Shown here: positions 15,549-40,563 of the stretch, piece by piece
How positions within the stretch are numbered: the stretch's first letter is position 1
Layout: the number at the start of each line of letters is the position of its first letter
Origin: a virus
Reading direction: 5' to 3' (one strand)
Virus record (IMG/VR): IMGVR_UViG_3300010373_000072
Location: 1-43,349 of that record
DNA: 43,349 bases
The notes under the pieces: model-generated
What the model was told of the DNA's origin: nothing
The model's database searches: none
Seen by the model: the letters and a program-made list of their open reading frames with translations, nothing else
Position numbers and translations under genes: made by a program

Positions 15549-16007
15549 TCAGCTCCTCAGGTTCGCCACTGCCTCGGCCGACGGCGTCCGCCGCTCGGCC
15601 CTTCCCTGCATCGACACCCCACCGATCCGGCCGGCCTTGATGTCTTCCCACGCCTGGTCGCCCCACTGGATCCCCAGCAGCCAGTCCCCGGCCTTGATGG
15701 TGTGCTCGGTGTCGTCGGCGGCCTTCACGGTCCAGTCCGGGCCCCTGTACACATAGCTCTCCACCACACGGCCGGCGCCGTCGGTGCCGTTGGCGTGCCA
15801 CAGGCCGACCTCGGGCGACTTGGTGAGGTAGGTCCACGCCGCGTCCTCGACGGCCGCCTTCGACGCGAAGTCGCGGAACCCGTCGGCGGCCACCGCCGCG
15901 TCGGGCTTGTCGGCGGGGTAGGCGACGTGCAGCGTGAACTTCTTCTCGGCTTCGGTCTTGACCAGGACGCCGGCGATGCCGCCGTCGGCCTTCTTCTTCT
16001 TGGCCAT
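15549..16007 (-). CDS. XkdF-like prohead protease
   Basis: 152 aa, ATG overlapping the portal stop (TGATG). After a KKKK start, the core has VGLWHANGT with a His near 70, GRVVESYVYR, WLLGIQWGDQAWEDIKAGRIGGVS and a Ser in GVSMQGRAERR. The H/ES/S order follows the XkdF family of putative serine proteases that process scaffold and capsid. It stands between portal and scaffold, the usual protease slot. It is short for a protease, so loss of activity cannot be excluded. Confidence 0.65.
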   Translation of the reverse strand: MAKKKKADGGIAGVLVKTEAEKKFTLHVAYPADKPDAAVAADGFRDFASKAAVEDAAWTYLTKSPEVGLWHANGTDGAGRVVESYVYRGPDWTVKAADDTEHTIKAGDWLLGIQWGDQAWEDIKAGRIGGVSMQGRAERRTPSAEAVANLRS

Positions 16008-19000
16008 CAGGCTCCTTCGGCTTCAGCGGGGGTGAGCGTGGCTGCGTCGAGTGCGCAGCGGCATCGGGGGTGTCCGGGCGGCGCGGCGATCCCGGAGGTG
16101 AACAGGGCGCCGAGCGGGATCGGCCCGTCGATCGAGTTCGCCTCGCAGACCAGGGGGCAGACGCGGTCGTCGGCGGCGGTCATCCACGTCTTGGCCTCGA
16201 CGCCCATCTGGCCGTAGGTTGCCAGGGTGGCCGCGGACACTGCCCGGTTGATCTCGGTGACGGCAACGAGCTCGGCCCACTGAGGGTCGTCGAGGATGCC
16301 GCGCAGGACCCGCGCGAGGTCGTCCACCGACTGGCCGGTGCCGACGGCGTCGGCGAGGGCGCGGGCGAGCTCGTCGAGGCGGTTGGAGGTGATCGAGCCG
16401 ATGGTGACGCCGGAGGCGTCGAGCAGCTGCGCGAGGCCGGATCCGGTGCCGGTGTCGCCAAGGAGCAGCCGTGCGGCGTCGGCGTCGCCGGGTTCCCAGC
16501 CGGACCAGTCGACGCGGACGCTGTTGACGACGGCGACGGCCGACAGTTCGCCGAGGAGCCAGCCTTCGGCGTAGGCGTCGGACAGGACGGCGCCGAGGGC
16601 GGCGCGGATGGCTTCGGCGGTGAGGTTGTCGTGCAGCCACGCACGGGCGTCGTCTTCGGCGCCGCTGCGTCCGGCTTTGGTGAGGCCGCGCGCGGCACCC
16701 CAGCGGTCTGCGAGGACGGGAGTGTCGACGCGGGCGGTCACGGCCGTGCGCAGGCGTTGGGCGTAGTGGCCGGCGAGGGCCTGGTCACGTTCCCAGCCCG
16801 GCCACGTGCGGGCCGACGGTGCTTTTGGGTCGGCATCACCGGCCTTGGCGATGGCTTCGGCCTGGGAGTGGGTGAACACGAACTCGACGGCGCGGCCACC
16901 GCGCTTGCGGGCGTGGCGCTGCCAGTTGCGGTAGGCGGCGACCTCGGCGCGGACGGCCTTGTCGAGCGGTTCGGCCAGCGGGATGGCGGGGACGAGCCAC
17001 GTCTGCACGGCCGTGCGGAGCGCTTGCTCGTAGCCATCCTTCGCGCCCTTCGCGCTGGCCCCGGACCGCTGCGAGGAGTGCATCGTGTCCCAGGGCCCGG
17101 TCTTGGTGGCGACGCGGCCGATGTAGGCCACGGCGGGCACGCCGAGCTGGCGGTAGGCCAGGGCCCGGTGGTGGCCGTCGATGACGATGTACTTGCGGGC
17201 GTCGGGCGTGTTCACCAGGATGATCGGCTTCAGCTTGCCCTGCCGGATCTTGCCGGTGAAGCGCTCGACCTTGTCCGGCTCGTCGGTGGCCCGCCAGTCC
17301 TCTTCGTTGCTGAAGTCGATGTCCGCGGTCGGGACCGTCTCGGGCCCGGACCAGACGGCGGTCTTCAGCCAGTCCATGGAGTCTTCGGGGTAGTCGCGGG
17401 CGAGCTGGTCGTGGACGCGCTGCCGGGTGGAGTCGGAGTCGGTGACGGCCGCGGTGGGGTCGGCGGCCTTCGCCGTCGGGGCCGCCGGCTTCCCGCCGCG
17501 CTGCTGCGCGCCGGCATCCCGTGGCGCCCTGTTGGCGCCCTGCGCCGCCTCGCCGGTGGCAGCCGACCCGGCAGCACCCGGCTGGCCGTCCTGCGTGCCC
17601 TCGGCACCCGGGGGCGTGTCGGTGGGGGCGGCCTGGGCCGGGGACAGCATCACGCCCGGCTGTGCGACCTGGGCGGCGCCCTCGAGGAACGTGACGCCGC
17701 CGCGCTGCGACACGACGATCGGCATGTCGGCTTCGGGGAAGTCGTACAGCGGCAGCCCGAGGCGCTTGCGGTCCTCGTTGTAGGTCATGCGGCCGGAGCG
17801 GACGCGGGTGTCGGCGACGGCGTCCTGCGCGGCCTCGTCCTCGGATTCCAGCCCGAGGAAGTCGAATTCGATCTCGGGCGGGGCGCCGAGCCACGTCCGC
17901 GAGATGTCGTTGATCAGCTCTCTGAGGCATGCGATGTCCGGGCGGCGGCCGACCCGGTCCATCACGTCCTCTTGGCCTTCGTGGTAGCCGGTGGAGCCGA
18001 GGCCCTTGGTTTCGGTGAACCCGAGCTCGGTGATCGGCACGCCAAAGAACGACGCGAGCAGCTTGATCAGGTGCAGGTCGTAGTCCGGCTTGTAGCGCTC
18101 GTCGACGCTGGGCATCATCTCCGGCTTGAACCCGGGGTAGGACAGCTTGATGCGGTGCCGGGCCGCGGTCTGGCCGCCGAGGTCGTCGTTGATGGCGGTC
18201 TCGTACTCGCGGCGCTGCCGCGGGTCCAGCTCCGAGGCTTCCGCGCCCTCCGGGACCAGCCACGTCAGCGGGGTCGAGCCGTCGTCGTACTCGGACAGCA
18301 TCCAGCCCTGGCGCTTCATGTACAGGCGGGCCGCGAGCAGCGCCTGCTCGACGGCGGACAGGCCGTAGAACGAGCGGGGCCGGAACGTCTCGCGCCAGTA
18401 GTACAGCTGGTCGGCCTTGTAGCCGCCGCGCATCACGGTGTTGCCCTGGTCGTCGACTTCGCAGGTGGCGGTGTACTCGCCGCGGGGGAAGCCGTAGAGC
18501 ACCTGCTGGAACGCCGGGTGGTCGCCGGACGGCCGGGCGCCGCGCCAGTCCGCGAGGGGCTTGATGGTGGAGGCGTCGACGATTTCGAGGTCGATGACGT
18601 CGCCACCGTAGGTAGTGCGCGGATAGATCGCGACGGCATCCAGCGTGAGGTGCTGATCCTGGACGGCGTTGACCCACTGCCCGAAGCTCATGCCGTTGGT
18701 TCGCCAGGGCTTCGTCCAGAACGCGGTGAGGCGGTCGATCTCGGGCTGGTACTTCTCGCGGAGCTGGCTTTCGAGGTCGTCCTTGCCGCGGCGGGGGTCG
18801 GCCCGGTAGGCGGCGGCAATGGCCTCGGTGGAGACGCCGAACGCCCAGTCGAGGGAGCGGACGTGCCGCTTCCGGATCTCGATGCAGCGGCGCATGATGT
18901 CGACCTGCGCGGCGGCGGTGTACAGCACGTCCCAGGGGATGAGCCTGGTCTCGTTGCCGGGGATGTTCCAGCCGACGGGGTATTCCCAGATGCGCACCTC

Positions 19001-19303
19001 GGGCCGGCCGGTGTCGGTGCGGGTCGGGGAGATGGGCTGTGGGATGTGGGGGTTGATGGGGCCGAAGGGGACGGCGTCCATGCTGTCGCGGGCCATGGGG
19101 CGAGTTGGGCCCCAGGTCTGCTGGCCGGTGTACTGGTTGAGGACTTCGGCGAAGGGCCGGGCGATGGGCTTGCCGGTTGCGTTGCCGGTGAGCCCGGCGG
19201 GGGCGCCTGCTTTGGCTGCGGTGTAGTCGGGGTTGGGCTGGATGTGGGCGCGGTTGTTCTGCTGCGGGCGGCGCCCGCGTGAGCGGTTGCGGCTGCGGGA
19301 CAC
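16007..19303 (-). CDS. Portal - ParB-like - MuF fusion protein
   Basis: 1098 aa, GTG 19303 with GAGGA upstream. Residues 90-550 are a phage portal (IPWDVLYTAAAQVDIMRRCIEIRKRHVRSLDW, FFGVPITELGFTE, EFDFLGLESEDEAAQ), the dodecameric DNA gate of the head. A Pro/Ala/Gly linker (550-625) leads to a ParB/Srx-like domain (about 635-735) with KVERFTGKIRQGKLKPIILV and VIDGHHRALAYRQLG. A helical segment follows, then a C-terminal MuF-like head morphogenesis domain (895-1090) with VTEINRAVSAATLATY, DDRVCPLVCE and PPGHPRCRCAL. These three parts are usually separate, or only portal-MuF are joined. The stop overlaps the protease start. Confidence 0.85.
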   Translation of the reverse strand: MSRSRNRSRGRRPQQNNRAHIQPNPDYTAAKAGAPAGLTGNATGKPIARPFAEVLNQYTGQQTWGPTRPMARDSMDAVPFGPINPHIPQPISPTRTDTGRPEVRIWEYPVGWNIPGNETRLIPWDVLYTAAAQVDIMRRCIEIRKRHVRSLDWAFGVSTEAIAAAYRADPRRGKDDLESQLREKYQPEIDRLTAFWTKPWRTNGMSFGQWVNAVQDQHLTLDAVAIYPRTTYGGDVIDLEIVDASTIKPLADWRGARPSGDHPAFQQVLYGFPRGEYTATCEVDDQGNTVMRGGYKADQLYYWRETFRPRSFYGLSAVEQALLAARLYMKRQGWMLSEYDDGSTPLTWLVPEGAEASELDPRQRREYETAINDDLGGQTAARHRIKLSYPGFKPEMMPSVDERYKPDYDLHLIKLLASFFGVPITELGFTETKGLGSTGYHEGQEDVMDRVGRRPDIACLRELINDISRTWLGAPPEIEFDFLGLESEDEAAQDAVADTRVRSGRMTYNEDRKRLGLPLYDFPEADMPIVVSQRGGVTFLEGAAQVAQPGVMLSPAQAAPTDTPPGAEGTQDGQPGAAGSAATGEAAQGANRAPRDAGAQQRGGKPAAPTAKAADPTAAVTDSDSTRQRVHDQLARDYPEDSMDWLKTAVWSGPETVPTADIDFSNEEDWRATDEPDKVERFTGKIRQGKLKPIILVNTPDARKYIVIDGHHRALAYRQLGVPAVAYIGRVATKTGPWDTMHSSQRSGASAKGAKDGYEQALRTAVQTWLVPAIPLAEPLDKAVRAEVAAYRNWQRHARKRGGRAVEFVFTHSQAEAIAKAGDADPKAPSARTWPGWERDQALAGHYAQRLRTAVTARVDTPVLADRWGAARGLTKAGRSGAEDDARAWLHDNLTAEAIRAALGAVLSDAYAEGWLLGELSAVAVVNSVRVDWSGWEPGDADAARLLLGDTGTGSGLAQLLDASGVTIGSITSNRLDELARALADAVGTGQSVDDLARVLRGILDDPQWAELVAVTEINRAVSAATLATYGQMGVEAKTWMTAADDRVCPLVCEANSIDGPIPLGALFTSGIAAPPGHPRCRCALDAATLTPAEAEGA

Positions 19304-19433
19304 GGGCCGTCCTCGAACTAGTTAGCGAGCCTAGCTAAGGATGCTAGCTCATATGTTCGAAGACCGGCAGCCGACCGGCTACTCTGGTGCCGCTCACCCG
19401 TGCCGCTGTCTAGGCGGCGCGGTGGGGCAGGTG
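19304..19433. promoter_or_regulatory. Divergent non-coding region upstream of portal and tRNA-like genes
   Basis: 130 bases with no gene. AT-richer than its surroundings at 19316-19357, where TAGC/GCTA blocks recur, including an inverted TTAGC...GCTAA around 19322-19338. The portal RBS (GAGGA) lies at its left edge. It may hold a promoter for either side; no convincing -35/-10 pair was found. Confidence 0.4.
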
Positions 19434-19515
19434 CAGCCCGTGGACCACAGCTTGGTAGTGGCAGGCGCGGCCTCGGTCGCGTAGCGGGTGGTGGGTTCAA
19501 ATCCCACCGGGCTGC
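19434..19515 (+). tRNA. tRNA-Pro-like gene with abnormal D and anticodon arms
   Basis: Acceptor stem CAGCCCG (19434-19440) pairs perfectly with CGGGCTG (19508-19514). The T-arm GTGGG-TTCAAAT-CCCAC is intact, and CCAC...GTGG closes a D-loop AGCTTGGTA identical to that of bacterial tRNA-Pro, as is the C1-G72 pair. However, two extra bases precede the D stem, and the anticodon arm folds only as GCGCG/CGCGT around an 8-base loop containing TCGG. No CCA is encoded. It could be a degenerate or unusual tRNA. Confidence 0.55.
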
Positions 19516-19522
19516 ACAGGCA

Positions 19523-19613
19523 CGGCCCGTAGCTCAGAGGGTTAGAGCGCCGGGCCCGGGAGCGGATATGCCCCTGGGAACGGAGGTCGCGGGTTCGAGT
19601 CCCGCCGGGCCGT
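19523..19613 (+). tRNA. tRNA-like gene with enlarged anticodon region
   Basis: Acceptor CGGCCCG (19523-19529) pairs with CGGGCCG (19606-19612). The D-arm GCTC-AGAGGGTTA-GAGC and the T-arm GCGGG-TTCGAGT-CCCGC are perfect. Between them are 40 bases instead of about 23. CCG...CGG can start an anticodon stem, but the loop holds an extra hairpin (CCCGGG...CCTGGG). Flanking sequence (GAGCGCCGGGC and GGAGGTCGCGGG) resembles actinobacterial tRNA-Met/Ile-type genes. No anticodon can be assigned. The gene is possibly inactive or structurally novel. Confidence 0.5.
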
Positions 19614-19631
19614 GCCGCGTACGCTGGGCGC

Positions 19632-20861: not shown

Positions 20862-20881
20862 CCCGCAGCCTACGCCGCGCC
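20862..20881. repeat. 20-bp gene-boundary repeat, copy 2
   Basis: Identical to 20553-20572. It overlaps the large terminase stop codon and the short gap before the next gene. Confidence 0.9.
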
Positions 20882-22330
20882 CTGCTCGCGCATCAGGTCG
20901 CGCATGAACTTCCCCGCGCTGGTCCCGCCCATCAGCAGCCAGCCCAGCGCCTGCGTCATCCCATCCACCTGGTCGTCGTGCGAGCCGTTCGGGAACGCGG
21001 AGCACTCCTCGACGAAGTCCCCGATCCACGGCGCGATCTTCGGGTCGGGCAGCTCGACGTCCCCCGCTTCGATGAACGGCGACACCGCGGAGGCCCTGGC
21101 CTCCTTCGAGTCGGTCGGGTTTTCCGCGACCAGCCCGCCGATCTCCCCGCGCAGCACCTGGATCACACCGGCGCCGTTTGCCTTCTCCTCGATCACCTTG
21201 CGGCGGGCCTGCGGCCACTTCGCCGACGACGCCCGCACCGCGGCGAGGGTGGCGGGCAGGTCCATACGGTCGCGCACCTGGTCCAGCAGCCACGCTTTCG
21301 AGCCGCGCCGCGCCCAAATCTGGATCACAACCCAGTCGGAGGTCTTCGTGTCCTTGAACGAGCAGTCCACGGACATCAGCACGTCTTCGGCGCCGATGGC
21401 GTGCCATGTGCCGTCGTGCCGCTGGTGTGCGCGGGCCACCGTGTAGTAGCGCCACCAGGCGCGCTTCAGGATGCCACCCTCGGCCGGGGCCGGGCGGCCC
21501 TGGTACAGGGCTCCCCAGGCGCGTGCGCCGACCTGGCGGCGGATCCGCTGCCATCCGGCGGGGGTGCGTCGGCGGGCCGAGGTGAGGTAGTCGCCGGGTT
21601 CGCGACCGAGCGGATCGGTCTGGCCCGCCGCGTCGTCGTGGTCGGCGACGGCGGGCACATTGACGTGCGTCCACTCCGCGGCCGACTCCGAGGCCAGCAG
21701 CCGCCCGGCGAGGTCGTCCTCGTGCCAGCGGGTCATCAGCAGCACCACCGGCGCGTCCGGGGCGAGGCGGGTGGAGCCGGTCTCGGTCCACCAGTCCCAC
21801 GCGGCGTCGCGGTACGTCTGCGAGTCGGCCTCGGCGCGGCCCTTCACGGGGTCGTCGATGATGAGGACGTCGACGGGGCGGCCGGTGAGCGCGCCGCCGA
21901 TGCCGCTCGTGACGACGCCGCCGCCGTGGCCGGCCAGCTGCCACTCGTGCGCGGCCGACGTGTCGTGCCGCACCGTCAGCCCGAGCTCGGGGTGGGCGGC
22001 GATGTCGTTGCGGATCGCACGGCCCCAGCGGCGGGCCACGTCGGCCTCGTAGCTGATGATGGCGATGCGGGTGTCGGGGTTGCGCAGCAGCAGCCACAGC
22101 GGGAACGCGCGGCTGATCCGCTGCGACTTGCCTTCCTGCGGGGGCATCGTCCAGATGAGGCGGTCCAGGCGGCGGTCGGCGACGCGGATGAGGCAGCGGT
22201 CGAGCAGGCCCAACGCTTCGGTGTGGACGGTGCGCGGATCCAGATATTCGGCGAGTTCGCCGGGGGTGGAGAACCGGGCCGGGCCCTGTTCGAGCATGTC
22301 CGCGGCAAGCAGCAGCGCGTTGCGCATCAT
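20870..22330 (-). CDS. terL: Terminase large subunit
   Basis: 486 aa. Two adjacent ATG codons; the first overlaps the small subunit stop. ATPase part: Walker A MPPQEGKS (62-69), Walker B LIIDDP (156-161), and a coupling motif LMTRW (198-202). Nuclease part: Asp in SVDCSFKD (320-327), EEKANG (381-386) and HDDQVD (451-456), the acidic residues of the RNase H-like fold. It pumps DNA into the prohead through the portal and cuts the concatemer. All key residues are present and length is typical. Confidence 0.93.
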   Translation of the reverse strand: MMRNALLLAADMLEQGPARFSTPGELAEYLDPRTVHTEALGLLDRCLIRVADRRLDRLIWTMPPQEGKSQRISRAFPLWLLLRNPDTRIAIISYEADVARRWGRAIRNDIAAHPELGLTVRHDTSAAHEWQLAGHGGGVVTSGIGGALTGRPVDVLIIDDPVKGRAEADSQTYRDAAWDWWTETGSTRLAPDAPVVLLMTRWHEDDLAGRLLASESAAEWTHVNVPAVADHDDAAGQTDPLGREPGDYLTSARRRTPAGWQRIRRQVGARAWGALYQGRPAPAEGGILKRAWWRYYTVARAHQRHDGTWHAIGAEDVLMSVDCSFKDTKTSDWVVIQIWARRGSKAWLLDQVRDRMDLPATLAAVRASSAKWPQARRKVIEEKANGAGVIQVLRGEIGGLVAENPTDSKEARASAVSPFIEAGDVELPDPKIAPWIGDFVEECSAFPNGSHDDQVDGMTQALGWLLMGGTSAGKFMRDLMREQGAA

Positions 22331-26065: not shown

Positions 26066-26502
26066 GCTGCGGTCCTTTCGGCGAGCCGGGTCGGGTGGGC
26101 GATGAGCCGCAGCTCGTCGCCGTAGGTGTTGGTGGTGCGGGCCCAGGTGGTCTCGCCGCAGCGCTTGCAGCGGCCGACGCGGTAGCCGGCGGGTTCGAAG
26201 TCGGGGCTGGACGGGCACCACGTCTCGCCTGCGGGCGCGCCGGCGACGGGGCGGGGCACGTACTCGACGGCCAGGAGCCGCCGTTCGACGCCGCGCTTGA
26301 TGGTCTGCTGGGTGGGGCGGCCGGGCTTGAAGTGGCCGTGGAGCAGGATGCTGATGGCGGCGAGCGACGTGCCGGAGGCGTCGGCGATGTCCTGCTGGCG
26401 CATGCCGCCGTCGACGAGCTGCCGGACGTGGTTGCGGGCGCGGGTGGCGTCGACCATGTGCGAGTCGGCGGCGTTGGTACGCCAGGGCTGCTCGGCGCGC
26501 AT
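26062..26502 (-). CDS. HTH and zinc-knuckle DNA-binding protein
   Basis: 146 aa, ATG overlapping the methyltransferase stop (TGATG). Residues 20-75 form a helix-turn-helix (RNHVRQLVDGGMRQQDIADASGTSLAAISILLHG). The C-terminal part has RVGRCKRCGETTW, half of a zinc ribbon. Likely a phage regulator of transcription. Sits in the middle gene block, so it may act on late or middle promoters; that is inference. Confidence 0.65.
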   Translation of the reverse strand: MRAEQPWRTNAADSHMVDATRARNHVRQLVDGGMRQQDIADASGTSLAAISILLHGHFKPGRPTQQTIKRGVERRLLAVEYVPRPVAGAPAGETWCPSSPDFEPAGYRVGRCKRCGETTWARTTNTYGDELRLIAHPTRLAERTAA

Positions 26503-27971
26503 CAGGACAGCACCGCCATGACGCGCTCGCCGACCCACTGGGCGACGTTGCAGGCCACGGCGTTCCCGGCCTGCATGGTCTGTTCGCCCTTGGTGCCGTG
26601 GACGATGTAGTCGCGGGGGAACCGCTGCGCGTACAGCTGCTCGCGGGGCTGGACCATCCGCAGCCAGCAGTCCTCGATCGCGGGGGCCGGGCCGACCAGG
26701 GCGGCGGAGTCGACCGTGGACATGGTGTGGAACGGCTCGTCGGTGGTCTTGGTCACGGCGTTGCGGTAGGGCACGACCAGGGCGTGGTGGTTCCCGCCGG
26801 AGGTGACGGTGGCCAGCGGCTCGGTGACGGCAGAGGCGTCGGCGTGGTTGCGGTACTCGACGATGAACGGCTCGCCGGTCGTCACCAGGGCCTCGAAGCC
26901 CTTGGGGTTGGCGGTGCGGGTCCGCATCGGCGCGCTGGTCGGGGTGGCGGTGGTGTTCCAGCCGCCGCCGGGCGGCACCAGCAGCCCTTCGCCGATCTTC
27001 GTGGATCGGGCGGGCAGCGGCGCCTGGTCGGCGGGGAAGGCGCGTCCGTCGTGGCCGTCGTGGTTGACGGTGACGACGCTGCGCCGGTCGGGGAACTTCG
27101 CCAGGCCGGCGGCGATGCGCCGCATGGTGGAGGCGGCCAGGGGCTTCTTGCGGTCGCCGATGCGCTCGCCGAGGTTGTCCCAATCGATGATCGTGGCGGC
27201 GGGGTTGATGTAGGGCTCGACGATCGCATGGCGGCACTGGGTGCGCTCGCAGCGGTAGTCGTACTGCTCGCGGTACTTGCCGACCTTGCCGAACCGGCGC
27301 GTCAGCGGGGTGTCGCGCCAGGACTGGACGGCGTGGACGTCGGTCTGGCAGACCTGGCACCAGGCTAGGGGGCGGGGCGCGAGGTCGGGCTTCTGGATGC
27401 CTTTGCGGGTGAACACGATGTAGATCCGGTCCCGCCACTGGGGCGCGGCCACGTTGCCGTCGCCGCCGATGTGCGCGGCGGAGACGGAGAGGATCTGGCC
27501 GTTGTAGCCGAGGCGCTCCATGCCGGAGAACCACCAGTCGAACAGCTCCCAGTCGACGACGAACTCGACGACGTTCTCGCACAGGACAGCGTCGTACCGG
27601 TGGACCTCGGTGGCGCGGATGACGTCGTAGGCGGTGGCGCGGGTGCGCTCCCAGGCGGCGGATTCGACGGGGCCGTGGTCCAGGAGCATTTGCTCGTCGG
27701 GCAGGAGGCGGCGGCTGCGCTTGCGGCCGCCGGCAGGGGAGATCTCGGTGCAGATGGGGGATGCCCACAGGACGCGGGTGCGGGGCAGGCGCCGCATGTC
27801 GTAGTTGTTGACGTCGGCGCAGATGTGGTCGGCGTTGCGGTGGTTTGCGGCGTGGGTCTCGATGGCGATCTTGCTGTGGTTGGCGGCGAGCTTCAGCTCG
27901 AATCCGGCGGCCACGAGGCCGGTGGAGGATCCGCCGGCACCGCAGAAGATGTCGGTGAAGGTGATGGTCAT
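26502..27971 (-). CDS. C5-cytosine DNA methyltransferase, variant catalytic motif
   Basis: 489 aa, ATG start. Motif I FTDIFCGAGGSSTGL (5-19) binds SAM. Motif VI has ENV (132-134) and motif VIII QWRDR (178-182). The catalytic-Cys motif IV reads SPICTEIS (Cys74) instead of the usual PPCQxFS. A four-Cys zinc-finger-like part (CQVC ... RCERTQCRH) follows. The target-recognition part contains repeats of the form EPLATVT...HHALVVPYRN, and the C-terminus has GNAV near motif X. No restriction partner is seen nearby, so it probably protects phage DNA or regulates it. Confidence 0.85.
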   Translation of the reverse strand: MTITFTDIFCGAGGSSTGLVAAGFELKLAANHSKIAIETHAANHRNADHICADVNNYDMRRLPRTRVLWASPICTEISPAGGRKRSRRLLPDEQMLLDHGPVESAAWERTRATAYDVIRATEVHRYDAVLCENVVEFVVDWELFDWWFSGMERLGYNGQILSVSAAHIGGDGNVAAPQWRDRIYIVFTRKGIQKPDLAPRPLAWCQVCQTDVHAVQSWRDTPLTRRFGKVGKYREQYDYRCERTQCRHAIVEPYINPAATIIDWDNLGERIGDRKKPLAASTMRRIAAGLAKFPDRRSVVTVNHDGHDGRAFPADQAPLPARSTKIGEGLLVPPGGGWNTTATPTSAPMRTRTANPKGFEALVTTGEPFIVEYRNHADASAVTEPLATVTSGGNHHALVVPYRNAVTKTTDEPFHTMSTVDSAALVGPAPAIEDCWLRMVQPREQLYAQRFPRDYIVHGTKGEQTMQAGNAVACNVAQWVGERVMAVLS

Positions 27972-28156
27972 CGGGCCACGCGTCCCTTCGTGGTGGTGGG
28001 CTGGGGTCCGATGACGTGCCAGCCGCCGCAGGGCACGCACTCGGCGGGTTCTTGGCGGCGGATGCCGGCGGCGGTGGCTGCGGCCCAGGCGGCGGCGCGG
28101 GCGTAGCGCCGGGTGCGGTACGTGGCTTCGGGGCAGGGCTGGGTGGGCGTGGTCAC
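27968..28156 (-). CDS. Small zinc-ribbon-like protein
   Basis: 62 aa, GTG start overlapping the upstream stop. A basic Tyr/Arg/Ala-rich helix (ATYRTRRYARAAAWAAATAA) is followed by CVPCGGWHVIG, a motif common in small actinophage proteins. With the CP near residue 8 it may form one metal site. Unknown role. Confidence 0.6.
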   Translation of the reverse strand: MTTPTQPCPEATYRTRRYARAAAWAAATAAGIRRQEPAECVPCGGWHVIGPQPTTTKGRVAR

Positions 28157-28488
28157 GCGGGCTCACCGCCGTCCGTGGCCACGGGCTGGCCGGTCTCGTA
28201 GAGCTCGGCACCGGCGATGCCCAGGACGTTGAGTGCGATGTCGAGGGTGCTCTCCCAGTCCAGCAGCGGGTCCAGGCCGCGGATGGCTTTGGTCAGGGCG
28301 TCGAGCATGCGCACGAAGTGGACCATCGATTCGCCGATGGCGGCCCGGCCGAGGTCGGGCATTTCGCGCGGGGCGGTCAGGCAGATCTGTTCGATCAGGT
28401 GCTGCTCTCGCGGGCTCGGGGCGCCGCGCTCGGCGAGGGCGGCGTGGACGTTGGCGATGGCTTCGGCCAGCGCGGGGTTCGTGGTCAT
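28153..28488 (-). CDS. Hypothetical protein
   Basis: 111 aa, ATG overlapping the upstream stop. Entirely helical by inspection (LAEAIANVHAALAERGAPS, IGESMVHFVRMLDALTKAI, LDIALNVLGIAGAELYETG). No family recognised. Confidence 0.6.
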   Translation of the reverse strand: MTTNPALAEAIANVHAALAERGAPSPREQHLIEQICLTAPREMPDLGRAAIGESMVHFVRMLDALTKAIRGLDPLLDWESTLDIALNVLGIAGAELYETGQPVATDGGEPA

Positions 28489-33370: not shown

Positions 33371-33726
33371 GACGCACGCTCGCGCTCGGCCCGGGCCGCG
33401 CCTTCCAGCGCCGCGATGACGTCCTCGGCGGTCCGGTTGTCGGCGTCGTTCCACCTGCCGATCGCGAGAACCAATGCGTCGCCATCTCGATCCTCGTCGG
33501 AACCGACTCGCAGGCCGAGGTGCTTGACCAGGCTGGCCATCGCCCGCCGCGTGTCGTCGTGCTCCCAGTCGTAGGCGTAGCGACCGCACGTGACGTTCAT
33601 GCCGCCGACCGCGCAGACTCGGCTTGTCCCGGAGGCGTGGAAGAATCCCTGATGCCAGCCGTCGTGCCGGATGGTGTCGGCAGCCCCGTCCAGGACGTCG
33701 GGGGTGGTGAGTTCGAGCTCGTTCAC
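33367..33726 (-). CDS. DUF6197-like protein
   Basis: 119 aa, GTG overlapping the Sak4-like stop. The pattern AADTIRHDGWHQGFFH...RVCAVGGM, DTRRAMASLVKHL, and GRWNDADNRTAEDVIAALEGAARAE is that of DUF6197 (family name from memory), a small domain of unknown role found in many actinobacteria and their phages. Confidence 0.7.
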   Translation of the reverse strand: MNELELTTPDVLDGAADTIRHDGWHQGFFHASGTSRVCAVGGMNVTCGRYAYDWEHDDTRRAMASLVKHLGLRVGSDEDRDGDALVLAIGRWNDADNRTAEDVIAALEGAARAERERAS

Positions 33727-35525
33727 CCCGCCACCCCCGCGGGCTCGCCCTGGACGTGCTTGGCCAGCCGCTCGCGCAGGCCCTGCGCGGCCTTGGCGCT
33801 GATCTCGCCACGCTGCTGCTCGGCGTCGATCGCCTGCTGCGTCTCCACGAACGTCGTCTCGGAGCGGACGTCCTGGATCATCTGGTCGAGCGCGTCGAGG
33901 ATGTTGAACCCTTCCTCGGCCGGGGCCACGTTCACGGCGGCCGGCGGGACCTCGCCGGTGTTCAGCGCCCGCAGCACCGCCTCGCACTGCGACCGCGTGA
34001 TCCGCGCCATCGTCTCGATGTCGTGGCCCAGCACCCGCGTGATGAACGCGTGCTTGTCGTCGTCGCCGATGCCCTTCTCGCGGAACAGCGCGTGCATCGC
34101 GCGCTGCTTCCCGTTCGACGCCACCGGGTCGGCCGGGGTCGGGCCGGTGGCGGGCTGCTGCGCACCGAGGTCCGGCTCGGCCGTCAGCGTCTCGACGATC
34201 GTGCGCGCCTCGGCCTGCGTCAGCTGCGACGGATGCGTGATCGGGCGCCGCGTCAGCGTCGACAGGATGTCGTTCCATGCCTTCTGGTTCTGGTTCCGCT
34301 TGGTGTGCAGCAGCTTTCCGACCTCGCGGACCTGGTACGGGGTGACGAGCGGCACGAGCGGCGACGGCGCGGGCGTGGCCCGCTCGCCGGCCGGGGCCGT
34401 CTCCGCCGTGCGCTCGGCCTTCCGGGCGTCCTGCGCGTCGAGCTTCTCCTGCTGCTCGACCTCGGAACGCAGCGCCGACAGCGCGCGCTCGACGTTCGGC
34501 CGCGACAGACGCTCGTCCAGGTTCACGTCCGGGCCGAGGATCTGCGCCAGCGCAGTACGCTGCGCCTCGATGCTGGTCGCGCCGCGCACCTGCACCAGGG
34601 CGGCGGCCAGCTGGCCGAGCTGCGTGTCGGTCGCCAGCGCGGGGCCCGCGGTCGTCCACTCGTCCTCGGAGCGGCCGCGCTCACGCTGCGCCTGGCGCTC
34701 CGGCTCGGCCGCCGCCTGCTCGTCGACGACCGCACGCGGGGCGGTGTACGACCGCGGCGCGGTCGCGCCCTCGGCGTCCAGGCCCATCCTCCGCAGCAGG
34801 CCGTCGACCGTGAACTGCGGCAGCGGCAGCTCGCTGCCGGGCGGCACCTGGACCACCGTCGAGCGGACGCCGGTCAGGAACGCCGACTGCGGCGCGTAGA
34901 TCTTCACGATCGCGTCGCACTCGTACGCGAGGTTCTTCTCCGCGCGGATCTTCCACTCGCGCCGGTCGGTCGGCTTACCGTTCTCGACGGTCGCGACCAG
35001 CTCCAGGCGGGCCAGCAGCAGCACCGGGCCGTCGTAGACGCGCAGCACGTCCAGGAACCGGCGCCACTTCTTCTTCGCTTCGTTCCACAGGTCCATCGTG
35101 ATCTGCACGTCCTCGGCCGGAGCCGGGCGCTTGGCCTGCGCGGCCTTGGCGGCCGCGCGGGCGTTGGCCTTGGCCTGGGCCTCGTCGGAGAGCAGGTCCC
35201 ACAGCTCGGTGATCGAGTCGACCGCGAAGCAGTGCGGCTTGCCGTTCGGGCGCGGCTCGGCGACGGCGGCCTGGGTCTGCTCCAGGATCGAGGTGAACGT
35301 GCCGTCGTGCTCGACGATCTCGTACCGGGCGCCCGGGATGGCGCCGTACTGGTCGGCCGCGCCCTCGCCGAGCTCGAGGTAGAAGGTGCGGTCGATCAGG
35401 TCGCTGCTGCTGAACAGGGCGACGCCGTAGGACTTGCCGGTCTTCTCGGCGCCGGCGATGCAGAACATCGGCCACGGGGGCTTGCCGGTCGGGCGCCGGG
35501 TGCGCAGCTTCGGGGCGTTGCTCAC
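33723..35525 (-). CDS. Sak4-like RecA-type ATPase with three tandem helical modules
   Basis: 600 aa, GTG overlapping the upstream stop. Walker A GAEKTGKS (25-32), Walker B CFAVDS (99-104) and a RecA-like core to about 245 match the Sak4/AAA_24 phage recombinases, which promote ssDNA annealing with an SSB. The C-terminal 300 residues carry three related modules: 300-352, 396-448 and 471-523, each with a short helix, L/F positions, and a final hydrophobic LTR/LTQ...ALRAL-type helix, as seen at the C-termini of other phage annealing proteins. A helical tail follows. Likely recombination and replication restart. Confidence 0.75.
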   Translation of the reverse strand: MSNAPKLRTRRPTGKPPWPMFCIAGAEKTGKSYGVALFSSSDLIDRTFYLELGEGAADQYGAIPGARYEIVEHDGTFTSILEQTQAAVAEPRPNGKPHCFAVDSITELWDLLSDEAQAKANARAAAKAAQAKRPAPAEDVQITMDLWNEAKKKWRRFLDVLRVYDGPVLLLARLELVATVENGKPTDRREWKIRAEKNLAYECDAIVKIYAPQSAFLTGVRSTVVQVPPGSELPLPQFTVDGLLRRMGLDAEGATAPRSYTAPRAVVDEQAAAEPERQAQRERGRSEDEWTTAGPALATDTQLGQLAAALVQVRGATSIEAQRTALAQILGPDVNLDERLSRPNVERALSALRSEVEQQEKLDAQDARKAERTAETAPAGERATPAPSPLVPLVTPYQVREVGKLLHTKRNQNQKAWNDILSTLTRRPITHPSQLTQAEARTIVETLTAEPDLGAQQPATGPTPADPVASNGKQRAMHALFREKGIGDDDKHAFITRVLGHDIETMARITRSQCEAVLRALNTGEVPPAAVNVAPAEEGFNILDALDQMIQDVRSETTFVETQQAIDAEQQRGEISAKAAQGLRERLAKHVQGEPAGVAG

Positions 35526-35695
35526 TGGCCGCCCTCCTTCTTCTCGAGCTTGCTGGCGGCCTTGTTGTGCCGGGCCGAGCGGATCCAGTAGGCGTTCGCG
35601 GCCTGGGGGTGGCCGTTCAGCCACGCGGCGTCCCCGGCCTCCTTCTCCAGCGCGGCGGCGGAGCGCAGCTCGGCCGGGGTGGCGACGCGCTTCAC
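35522..35695 (-). CDS. Very small hypothetical protein
   Basis: 57 aa, GTG start and stop both overlapping neighbours (GTGA junctions). KRVATPAELRSAAALEKEAG, AYWIRSARHNKAASKLEKKEG: one or two charged helices. Good codon use supports it. Directly before the Sak4-like gene. Confidence 0.6.
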   Translation of the reverse strand: MKRVATPAELRSAAALEKEAGDAAWLNGHPQAANAYWIRSARHNKAASKLEKKEGGQ

Positions 35696-38941: not shown

Positions 38942-39304
38942 ATGTCAATACCGTCCCGCATAACCCCAAGGCCCCCTGAACGCCCGAAACGGGCGCCGTG
39001 GCGCATCGCCATCGTCCTGTGGACGATCGCCGCGGCACAGCTCATCGTCGAGTTCCGCCTCGGGCCCGAAAGCCCGGCCGCCGAGCGACTCCTCGACACC
39101 GTGACATTCCTCCTCGTCGGCGCCGGACTGTGCTCCGTCACCACCACCCTCGTCCAGCGCCGCACCGTCGACCCGTACCGCGACTTCCTGGCCAGCCTCG
39201 ACCAGCTCCACGCCGCCGGCTACCGCCAGGGCTACGACCGGGGCTACCGCGACGGCCACGACCCCGACCCCGGCAACGACGGGGGCGGGGGCGCCCTTCG
39301 GTAG
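38942..39304 (+). CDS. Small membrane protein between repressor and integrase
   Basis: 120 aa, ATG with GGAGG upstream. Two membrane segments (WRIAIVLWTIAAAQLIVEF and LDTVTFLLVGAGLCSVTTTLV), then a charged tail with repeated Tyr-Gly-Arg-Asp (GYRQGYDRGYRDGHD) and a Gly end. Expressed with the lysogeny genes, so a superinfection-exclusion or prophage-phenotype role is possible but unproven. Confidence 0.65.
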   Translation: MSIPSRITPRPPERPKRAPWRIAIVLWTIAAAQLIVEFRLGPESPAAERLLDTVTFLLVGAGLCSVTTTLVQRRTVDPYRDFLASLDQLHAAGYRQGYDRGYRDGHDPDPGNDGGGGALR

Positions 39305-39369
39305 CCCCGCAGACGACGCGCCTCTTCCCCGGCGCGTCTTTCCACCACCACCGACACCGAGGGGGGCGC

Positions 39370-40563
39370 ATGGCCTGGGGCGAGAAGCGCGGCAAGGGTG
39401 AGTACCCGTGGACCGCGGTCTACCGCATCGGCACCAAGCCGAACGGCAGGCCCGACTACAAGAAGGACCCCGGCTTCGCCACCGAGAAGGCCGCCGAGGA
39501 TCACGGCCGGCTCCAGGAGGCCGCAGTCCGCGCCGGACGCTGGCACGACCCCCGCCGCGGCGAGATCACCCTTGACGACTACTGGGCCAAGTGGCTCGTC
39601 GGCTACGACACCTCCGACCGGAACCTCCTCGTCCGGCAGACCCACTACAACCAGCACCTCAAGCCCCGCTGGGGCAACCGGGCCCTGAAGGACATCGACG
39701 CCCTGGACGTCGCGGCGTTCGAGAAGGAGCTGCGCGGCAAGGTTTCCCGCAAGTACGCGGGCAGCATCATGGAGCTACTGCGGATGCTCATGGAGGACGC
39801 ACAGTTCGCCCGCCTGATCGAGTTCACCCCCGTACGCGCCCAGTCCCGCCGAGGCCAGAGGGAACCCTCGAAGGCCCGCGTTGGCCGCGTCACGGATATC
39901 CCCACGGTGATGGCAGTCTGCCACCGGCTGCCGGACCCCGAAGCCCTCATGACCCTCACAGCCCTGTTCACCGGCATGCGCTGGGGCGAGGTCATCGGCG
40001 TTCGCCGCTCGTTCCTCGACCTGTACCCGGCCCGCGGCGGCAAGAAGGCCCACGGCACCTACACCATCGACCCGGCCATCGGCGCCGTGCACCAGATTGG
40101 CGGCCGCCGCTTCTACGCGTGGCCCAAGGGCCGCAAGGGCCGCGTGATCGAGCTGCCGGAGTTCCTCGTCCTGAAACTCCTGGCCCACCTGGCGACGTTC
40201 CCGCCGGAGCGCGACCTGCTGTGGTGCACCAGCACCGGCGTCGCGTTCGACCGGAGCAACTACAACGACCGCCGGTGGCGCCCGGCGTGCGACGGCTGGG
40301 AGGGGCGCGACGCGGTCAAGGGGCGCAGCGCGCTGCTGCCGGCGCCCGCGGTCGCCGAGGGGCTCCACATCCACGACCTGCGGCACACGCACAAGACGTG
40401 GCTGGCCGAGGACGGTATCGAGGCGGTCGCGCGGGATGAGAGGCTGGGGCATGTGACGCCGGGCATGGACGGGGTGTACATCCACCCGACGCCGGCGATG
40501 CGGGCTCGGATCCTGGCCGTGCTCCAGGCGCGTTGGGAGAAGTATCAGACGTCAACAGCTTGA
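39370..40563 (+). CDS. int: Tyrosine integrase
   Basis: 397 aa. ATG 39370 is chosen because upstream codons in frame belong to another gene. N-terminal arm-binding domain (YPWTAVYRIGTKPNGRPDYKK), then a SAM-like core-binding domain (LDDYWAKWL, GNRALKDIDALDVAAFEKEL). The catalytic domain has Arg in FTGMRWGEV, HDLRHTH (His and Arg of the box), LGHV and the nucleophile Tyr in GVYIHP. It recombines attP with a host tRNA gene. The attP site follows immediately, and all catalytic residues are present. Confidence 0.93.
   Translation: MAWGEKRGKGEYPWTAVYRIGTKPNGRPDYKKDPGFATEKAAEDHGRLQEAAVRAGRWHDPRRGEITLDDYWAKWLVGYDTSDRNLLVRQTHYNQHLKPRWGNRALKDIDALDVAAFEKELRGKVSRKYAGSIMELLRMLMEDAQFARLIEFTPVRAQSRRGQREPSKARVGRVTDIPTVMAVCHRLPDPEALMTLTALFTGMRWGEVIGVRRSFLDLYPARGGKKAHGTYTIDPAIGAVHQIGGRRFYAWPKGRKGRVIELPEFLVLKLLAHLATFPPERDLLWCTSTGVAFDRSNYNDRRWRPACDGWEGRDAVKGRSALLPAPAVAEGLHIHDLRHTHKTWLAEDGIEAVARDERLGHVTPGMDGVYIHPTPAMRARILAVLQARWEKYQTSTA

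What the first reader, a model, noticed from the sequence alone, without database searches (positions are those of the whole stretch)
16007..19303. Portal fused to a ParB-like domain and a MuF domain in one 1098-aa protein
A single open frame joins a portal (90-550), a Pro/Ala/Gly linker, a ParB/Srx-like domain with IDGHHRALA (635-735), a helical segment, and a MuF-like C-terminus (895-1090). Portal and MuF are known neighbours in phages (established knowledge). A ParB-like fold with intact GHHR between them, incorporated at up to 12 copies per head, suggests a nucleotide-binding or nucleic-acid-modifying activity at the packaging vertex or delivered into the cell (inference).
Basis: partly seen in the sequence, partly recalled or inferred. 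Interest (0 to 1): 0.68.

Follow-up and report, generated by a model that had tools for sequence, protein, structure and literature searches.

The report
Phage portal protein carrying enzyme-like cargo domain
The protein that forms the DNA gate of this phage's head also carries a nucleotide-binding-type domain on flexible tethers; the same virus-only domain turns up on the gate proteins of many other uncultured phages, probably as cargo delivered into the host, but its chemistry is untested.

Summary
It reads HK97-type portal (residues 96-550), disordered linker, ParB/Srx-fold domain (622-746), second disordered linker, helical MuF region (836-1090). Two contigs from other metagenomes carry the same unbroken frame, and distant relatives keep the order. 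AlphaFold and Foldseek confirm the ParB/Srx fold. The DGHHR motif matches free serine kinases (SerK/SbnI), not the CTPase motif of ParB; no Pfam ParB model matches. Scanning IMG/VR with this domain gave 152 relatives. In 68 of 84 contigs examined it is fused to a portal, in 9 it lies beside one. The portals include at least four sequence-unrelated types, and the domain sits before or after MuF, often with intact NUDIX, ADP-ribosyltransferase or 2H domains. The best relatives of the window's domain sit on unrelated portals or stand alone, and some close portal relatives lack it. It behaves as a swappable head cargo module. Most likely it is a virion-packaged, NTP-using effector, a new variant of known portal/MuF-fused effectors. 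Release into the host, substrate and chemistry are inferred. A tethered role at the packaging vertex is not excluded.

The parts
16007..19303 (-). 1098-aa portal / ParB-like / MuF fusion protein (GTG start at 19303)
   Evidence: same frame intact in L003 and L004
17654..19018 (-). portal domain, residues 96-550, HK97-type (PF04860, phrog_2662)
17441..17653 (-). Pro/Ala/Gly-rich linker, residues 551-621, predicted disordered
   Evidence: pLDDT < 50 over 546-620; dN/dS 0.53 in one pair
17066..17440 (-). ParB/Srx-fold domain, residues 622-746
17165..17179 (-). DGHHR motif, residues 709-713
   Evidence: same motif in SerK. Invariance in 65/65 is partly selected for by the search pattern
17069..17080 (-). 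family-specific H742...Q745 motif after the last strand (consensus GPWDExHSxQ)
   Evidence: H and Q invariant in 65/65, not part of the search pattern
16799..17065 (-). second flexible tether, residues 747-835
   Evidence: low pLDDT at 748-785, 802-810 and 815-823
16034..16798 (-). helical region plus MuF domain, residues 836-1090
   Evidence: Phage_Mu_F 978-1085; AF2 helices
15549..16007 (-). head maturation protease (Peptidase_S78_2), next gene; candidate for cutting the linkers (inference)
   Evidence: PF14550 E 1.4e-14
20870..22330 (-). terminase large subunit, upstream, giving the packaging-module context
   Evidence: PF17289 E 1.3e-19, phrog_38 E 1.6e-100

Best explanation
The protein is a portal subunit that carries a MuF head protein and, between them on flexible tethers, a small NTP-binding enzyme domain of the ParB/Srx fold (SerK-like DGHHR branch). 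By established portal structure the C-terminal side of a portal faces the head interior, so the fusion loads up to 12 copies into the virion without a separate packaging signal. Most likely the domain is an early-infection effector: freed by cutting of the linkers, perhaps by the neighbouring S78-type protease, and ejected with the DNA, where it binds or turns over a nucleotide or transfers a phosphate, as NUDIX, ART and 2H domains on the same kind of protein are thought to do, to blunt host defence or redirect metabolism. Shown here: architecture, fold, motif conservation, and recurrent mobility among unrelated portals. Inferred: location, stoichiometry, cutting, injection, catalysis and target.
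For: Fold and motif. Portal linkage: of 84 distinct contigs found mainly with ParB-domain queries, 68 have the domain in a portal ORF and 9 within about 1.3 kb of one (three of the 68 are called portal by synteny with TerL). Portal types: PF04860, PF06381 and PF06074 and phrog_145 (one weak SPP1_portal match), with no detectable profile similarity between these groups (hhalign probability 1.5% or less). Swapping: in the domain tree, portal type changes at least 17 times by parsimony; the window groups with domains on L023-type and phrog_145-type portals, while the 43-45% identical portals of L005-L008, L010 and L019 and the 52% identical L009 lack the domain; L009 is portal-MuF with a gap exactly there. 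Order varies: before MuF, after MuF, with NUDIX on either side, or as a separate gene. Company: NUDIX in 22 ORFs, all with an intact Nudix box; 2H in 7 and ADPrib_exo_Tox in 3 of 62. NUDIX, ART and 2H fused to MuF or portal are already interpreted as injected effectors (PMC9503650, PMC5512222). The domain is a rigid bead between two disordered tethers.
Against: No experiment shows packaging, cutting or injection. A domain left attached to the portal cannot be injected. SerK's catalytic Glu30 aligns to a position that is E, D or Q in the family (44 acidic, 20 amide, 1 His of 65, alignment uncertain by about 3 residues), and the substrate-binding second half of SerK is absent, so catalysis is not assured. 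Invariance of DGHHR is inflated because the search pattern contained it. Seven contigs show no portal near the domain, two of them truncated. dN/dS of 0.22 for the domain rests on one pair and nine amino-acid changes.
Confidence: 0.55

Rival explanations
1. The domain stays tethered to the portal and acts in the head: an NTP-binding switch or DNA-contacting clamp that senses or regulates packaging, or guards the DNA end at the vertex.
For: Most copies are covalently joined to a portal; ParB-fold domains are NTP switches in other systems (PMC12704722); up to 12 copies would sit at the vertex.
Against: Close portal relatives lack it (L005-L010, L019). It also occurs as a separate gene (L018, L029, L036, L044, L047) and on ART- or MuF-containing proteins without a portal domain (L085, L099). 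It has no HTH and no ParB CTP motif.
Confidence: 0.2
2. It is a ParB-like nuclease that nicks or degrades host or competing phage DNA after injection.
For: Other ParB-fold domains (Osa, ParB-methylase, GmrS) are reported as DNases or nucleotidases (reviewed in PMC5512222); one of 62 ORFs matches ParBc_2 'putative nuclease' at E 0.0014.
Against: The window does not reach ParBc_2 (E 0.17, cut-off missed). The closest solved relatives are serine kinases. The nuclease label of the fold is itself disputed (PMC3482391).
Confidence: 0.12
3. It is a nucleotide- or ligand-binding relic without catalysis, kept as a spacer or binding module.
For: The putative catalytic Glu is variable; the linkers evolve fast.
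Against: W645, W670, P693, H742 and Q745 are invariant in 65 divergent sequences, and of these only W670 lies within a search pattern; dN/dS 0.22 in the one pair testable.
Confidence: 0.1
4. Assembly or frame artefact.
For: A single metagenomic contig; high-GC sequence gives long spurious frames.
Against: The same intact frame in contigs from two other metagenomes and the same order in six divergent relatives.
Confidence: 0.02

Closest known systems
Portal- or MuF-fused effectors and polyvalent proteins (Iyer et al. 2017, PMC5512222; 2022, PMC9503650)
   Same: Enzyme domains (PBECR, 2H, inorganic pyrophosphatase, NUDIX, ART) fused to portal or MuF and predicted to be packaged and injected.
   Different: The passages read there do not mention a SerK-like ParB domain on portals. 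Here it recurs on at least four portal types and shuffles position.
Portal-NUDIX-MuF proteins of Arthrobacter phages Mufasa8 and Sonali (L001, L002)
   Same: Same three-part order, NUDIX where the window has ParB, homologous portal and MuF.
   Different: Different cargo fold. Annotated only as portal, MutT/NUDIX hydrolase or 'portal and MuF-like fusion'.
Portal-MuF fusions of Microbacterium phage clusters EA and EB (PMC7302621)
   Same: Portal and MuF in one gene.
   Different: No ParB cargo reported in the passages read.
Free serine kinases SerK (5x0b, 1vk1) and SbnI (6nr6)
   Same: ParB/Srx fold with DGHHR (SbnI DGVHR); best PDB profile match.
   Different: Cellular metabolic enzymes of about 240-255 aa; the phage domain lacks their second half, and the catalytic Glu is not strictly kept.
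DdrB-like ParB domains of phage P1-type internal head proteins (PMC5512222)
   Same: ParB/Srx domain in a virion-packaged protein.
   Different: No detectable sequence relation: hmmsearch finds nothing and hhalign gives 0.8% at an unrelated site.
MuF polymorphic toxins of temperate phages (PMC5576092)
   Same: MuF protein with an extra enzymatic domain, next to portal and terminase genes.
   Different: Their toxin is C-terminal to MuF with a small candidate immunity gene after it; here the cargo lies before MuF and the next gene is the head protease.

Membership tests
ParB/Srx fold superfamily | ParB/Srx alpha+beta fold | tested here: met
   AF2 pLDDT 88.6; the listed Foldseek PDB matches are ParB, Noc, KorB, PadC, Srx, SerK, SbnI or Atu1540 proteins, prob about 1.00 for most of the top 40
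ParB/Srx fold superfamily | Conserved Arg in the phosphate-binding GxxR-type motif | tested here: met
   R713 of DGHHR, 65/65 (partly ascertained by the search pattern)
Canonical ParB CTPase (PF02195 / TIGR00180) | Profile match over cut-off | tested here: not met
   PF02195: no match in the window; TIGR00180 15.1 bits against cut-off 58.45
Canonical ParB CTPase (PF02195 / TIGR00180) | GERRxRA motif, HTH and C-terminal dimerisation domain | tested here: not met
   Motif is DGHHRALA; no HTH or dimerisation family found
Free serine kinase SerK/SbnI | DGHHR nucleotide-binding motif in the ParB fold | tested here: met
Free serine kinase SerK/SbnI | Catalytic Glu (SerK Glu30) | tested here: inconclusive
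   Likely equivalent position, residue 675 (E in the window), is E 30, Q 18, D 14, N 2, H 1 of 65; alignment in this loop is uncertain
Free serine kinase SerK/SbnI | Full-length match including the second half of about 130 aa | tested here: not met
   Profile aligns only to SerK residues 11-82 of 242
ParBc_2 putative nuclease (PF08857) | Pfam match over cut-off | tested here: not met
   12.5 bits against cut-off 23.6
DdrB-like ParB domain | Sequence similarity to the P1 DdrB domain | tested here: not met
Portal protein (PF04860) | Profile match over cut-off and position after TerL | tested here: met
   43.2 bits against 39.1; TerL upstream, protease downstream
MuF head protein (PF04233) | Profile match over cut-off | tested here: met
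   33.6 bits against 29.6
Portal/MuF-fused injected effectors | Enzyme-type domain fused to a portal or MuF in a packaging module | tested here: met
Portal/MuF-fused injected effectors | Packaging into the head and release into the host | not testable with these tools
   Needs virion proteomics and an ejection assay

The most novel reading that the evidence does not exclude
A virus-only ParB/Srx family has become a dedicated portal-borne cargo domain, repeatedly moved between unrelated portal types and paired with NUDIX, ADP-ribosyltransferase and 2H domains: a twelve-copy nucleotide-chemistry counter-defence kit injected with the genome by uncultured phages.
Probability: 0.35. Interest if true: 0.72.

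Novelty: new variant of a known kind. Interest (0 to 1): 0.52.

Why it matters
Portals are usually treated as conserved machinery. Here the portal gene is a loading dock for exchangeable enzyme domains, and one previously unmodelled ParB/Srx branch is specialised for it. The IMG/VR relatives give a ready list of cargo and a direct test, virion proteomics and ejection assays on the portal chain, of whether portal-fused domains are injected. The main text of a 2025 survey of the ParB fold (PMC12704722), which searched with PF02195 and TIGR00180 among its models, does not mention portal, MuF, capsid or terminase; PF02195 does not match this window.

Tried and rejected
Reading the + strand: spurious frame. 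A PDB search with wrong-frame coordinates was discarded and repeated. PF02195, TIGR00180, ParBc_2 and DdrB membership: not met. Search for the domain in cultured phages: the window's own domain finds nothing at E 0.1 and a consensus only remote ParB-like proteins at E 0.04 or worse; plasmids none; bacterial and archaeal genomes by pattern, only eight weak archaeal matches. Full-length AF2: low overall confidence (pLDDT 66, pTM 0.38), used only for domain boundaries. NUDIX elsewhere in the window: none. ADPrib_exo_Tox in the window: no match, but the controls did not ring either. Structured intron in the split MuF relatives: no Rfam match. Active-site text for SbnI: paper not held.

Full report
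OBSERVATION. The frame at 16007-19303 is real and on the minus strand: 1098 aa, GTG start. It lies in a minus-strand head module with TerL at 22330-20870 and an S78-type head protease at 16007-15549. Pfam finds a portal (204-516) and MuF (978-1085), both over the curated cut-offs; the middle domain is below cut-off in Pfam but matches PHROG ParB-like families and, weakly, the SerK and SbnI models of NCBIfam. Contigs from two other metagenomes (L003, L004) carry the same unbroken frame at 92% identity.

FOLD. A 65-sequence alignment of the middle domain (A4) gives an AlphaFold model with pLDDT 88.6 and pTM 0.80. Its listed PDB matches are ParB, Noc, KorB, PadC, sulfiredoxin, SerK, SbnI and the protein Atu1540. 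As a sequence profile it finds SerK at E 1.3e-5 and SbnI at 5.6e-4. Invariant besides DGHHR: W645, W670, P693, H742 and Q745. DGHHR was part of one scan pattern and W670 lies in the other, so those are partly ascertained; W645, P693, H742 and Q745 are not. SerK's Glu30 falls near a position that is acidic in only 44 of 65, and SerK's second half is absent, so serine kinase activity should not be assumed.

ANATOMY. The full-length model is poor overall but shows the middle domain as an ordered bead (622-746) between two low-confidence stretches (546-620 and about 748-835), then a helical MuF region. Between the window and L003, dN/dS is 0.03 in the portal, 0.22 in the middle domain, 0.13 in MuF and about 0.55 in the linker and helical parts (one pair only).

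RELATIVES. A scan of IMG/VR with the middle domain returned 152 relatives, 80 kept. The same query in genomes of 84,980 bacterial and archaeal species gave eight weak archaeal matches only; cultured phages and plasmids gave no convincing match. The family looks confined to phages of uncultured hosts, subject to the limits of pattern scans. Counting each contig once, 68 of 84 carry the domain in the same ORF as a portal and 9 within about 1.3 kb of one. Portal types are PF04860, PF06381, PF06074, a phrog_145/SPP1-like group and a fifth group recognised by its place after TerL; these groups have no detectable profile similarity to one another. The domain lies between portal and MuF (window, L028, L030, L035, L081, L095, L097), after MuF, before or after NUDIX, or alone. 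NUDIX is present in 22 ORFs of this set, always with an intact Nudix box; 2H and ADP-ribosyltransferase domains occur as well.

MOBILITY. In the domain tree portal type needs at least 17 changes. The window's nearest domains apart from its near-copy are on an L023-type portal (50%) or stand alone (L036, 51%), whereas the 68% identical portal of L028 carries a domain only about 44-46% identical. Portals 43-52% identical to the window's in L005-L010 and L019 lack the domain; L009 is portal-MuF with the domain missing exactly. Faster evolution of the domain would explain part of this, but not its presence on unrelated portals.

MECHANISM. From portal structure (established knowledge) the C-terminal side of a portal faces the head interior, so the fusion puts up to 12 copies in the head, against one or two for SPP1 gp7, the best-studied MuF (PMC5576092). 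The company it keeps (NUDIX, ART, 2H, all already read as injected effectors when fused to MuF or portal: PMC5512222, PMC9503650) and its mobility favour a delivered effector over a packaging part. Cutting by the adjacent protease is a guess; P1 DarA, annotated as processed during head maturation and released on infection, is a precedent for the route, not for this protein.

VERDICT. Real, well supported as architecture, a new variant of known head-fused effectors built on a ParB/Srx branch that Pfam does not model. Function is unproven.

Noticed in passing
window 19430-19616 (+): A tRNA (Rfam 49.6 bits, 19523-19613) with an unusually long anticodon region (ARAGORN reports a two-base anticodon), and a second tRNA-like stretch beside it judged by eye, on the strand opposite to the portal gene.
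   Followed up: partly
L005, L006, L008, L010, L019: Portal relatives without the ParB domain whose MuF region is split between frames by an insert of roughly 0.8-2 kb; no Rfam match in the three loci searched.
   Followed up: partly
L077:7202-7204: An in-frame TAG at the end of the portal core in an otherwise continuous portal-ParB frame.
   Followed up: no
L009, L018, L096: Intein or LAGLIDADG-like insertions in or next to portal genes; L009 and L096 judged by eye or by a split portal match.
   Followed up: no
L028 and L030, C-termini of the portal ORFs: Portal-ParB-MuF proteins with a further domain after MuF: zincin-like HEFGH in L028 and ADP-ribosyltransferase-like in L030, judged by eye.
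   Followed up: no
L015:9969-13379 (+): A 1137-aa separate MuF protein with several ADP-ribosyltransferase-like segments near a related portal, judged by eye.
   Followed up: no
window 26502-28211 (-), 33723-35624 (-), 38998-40563 (+): C5 cytosine methylase, AAA_24 ATPase and tyrosine integrase-like frames; the phage may be temperate.
   Followed up: no
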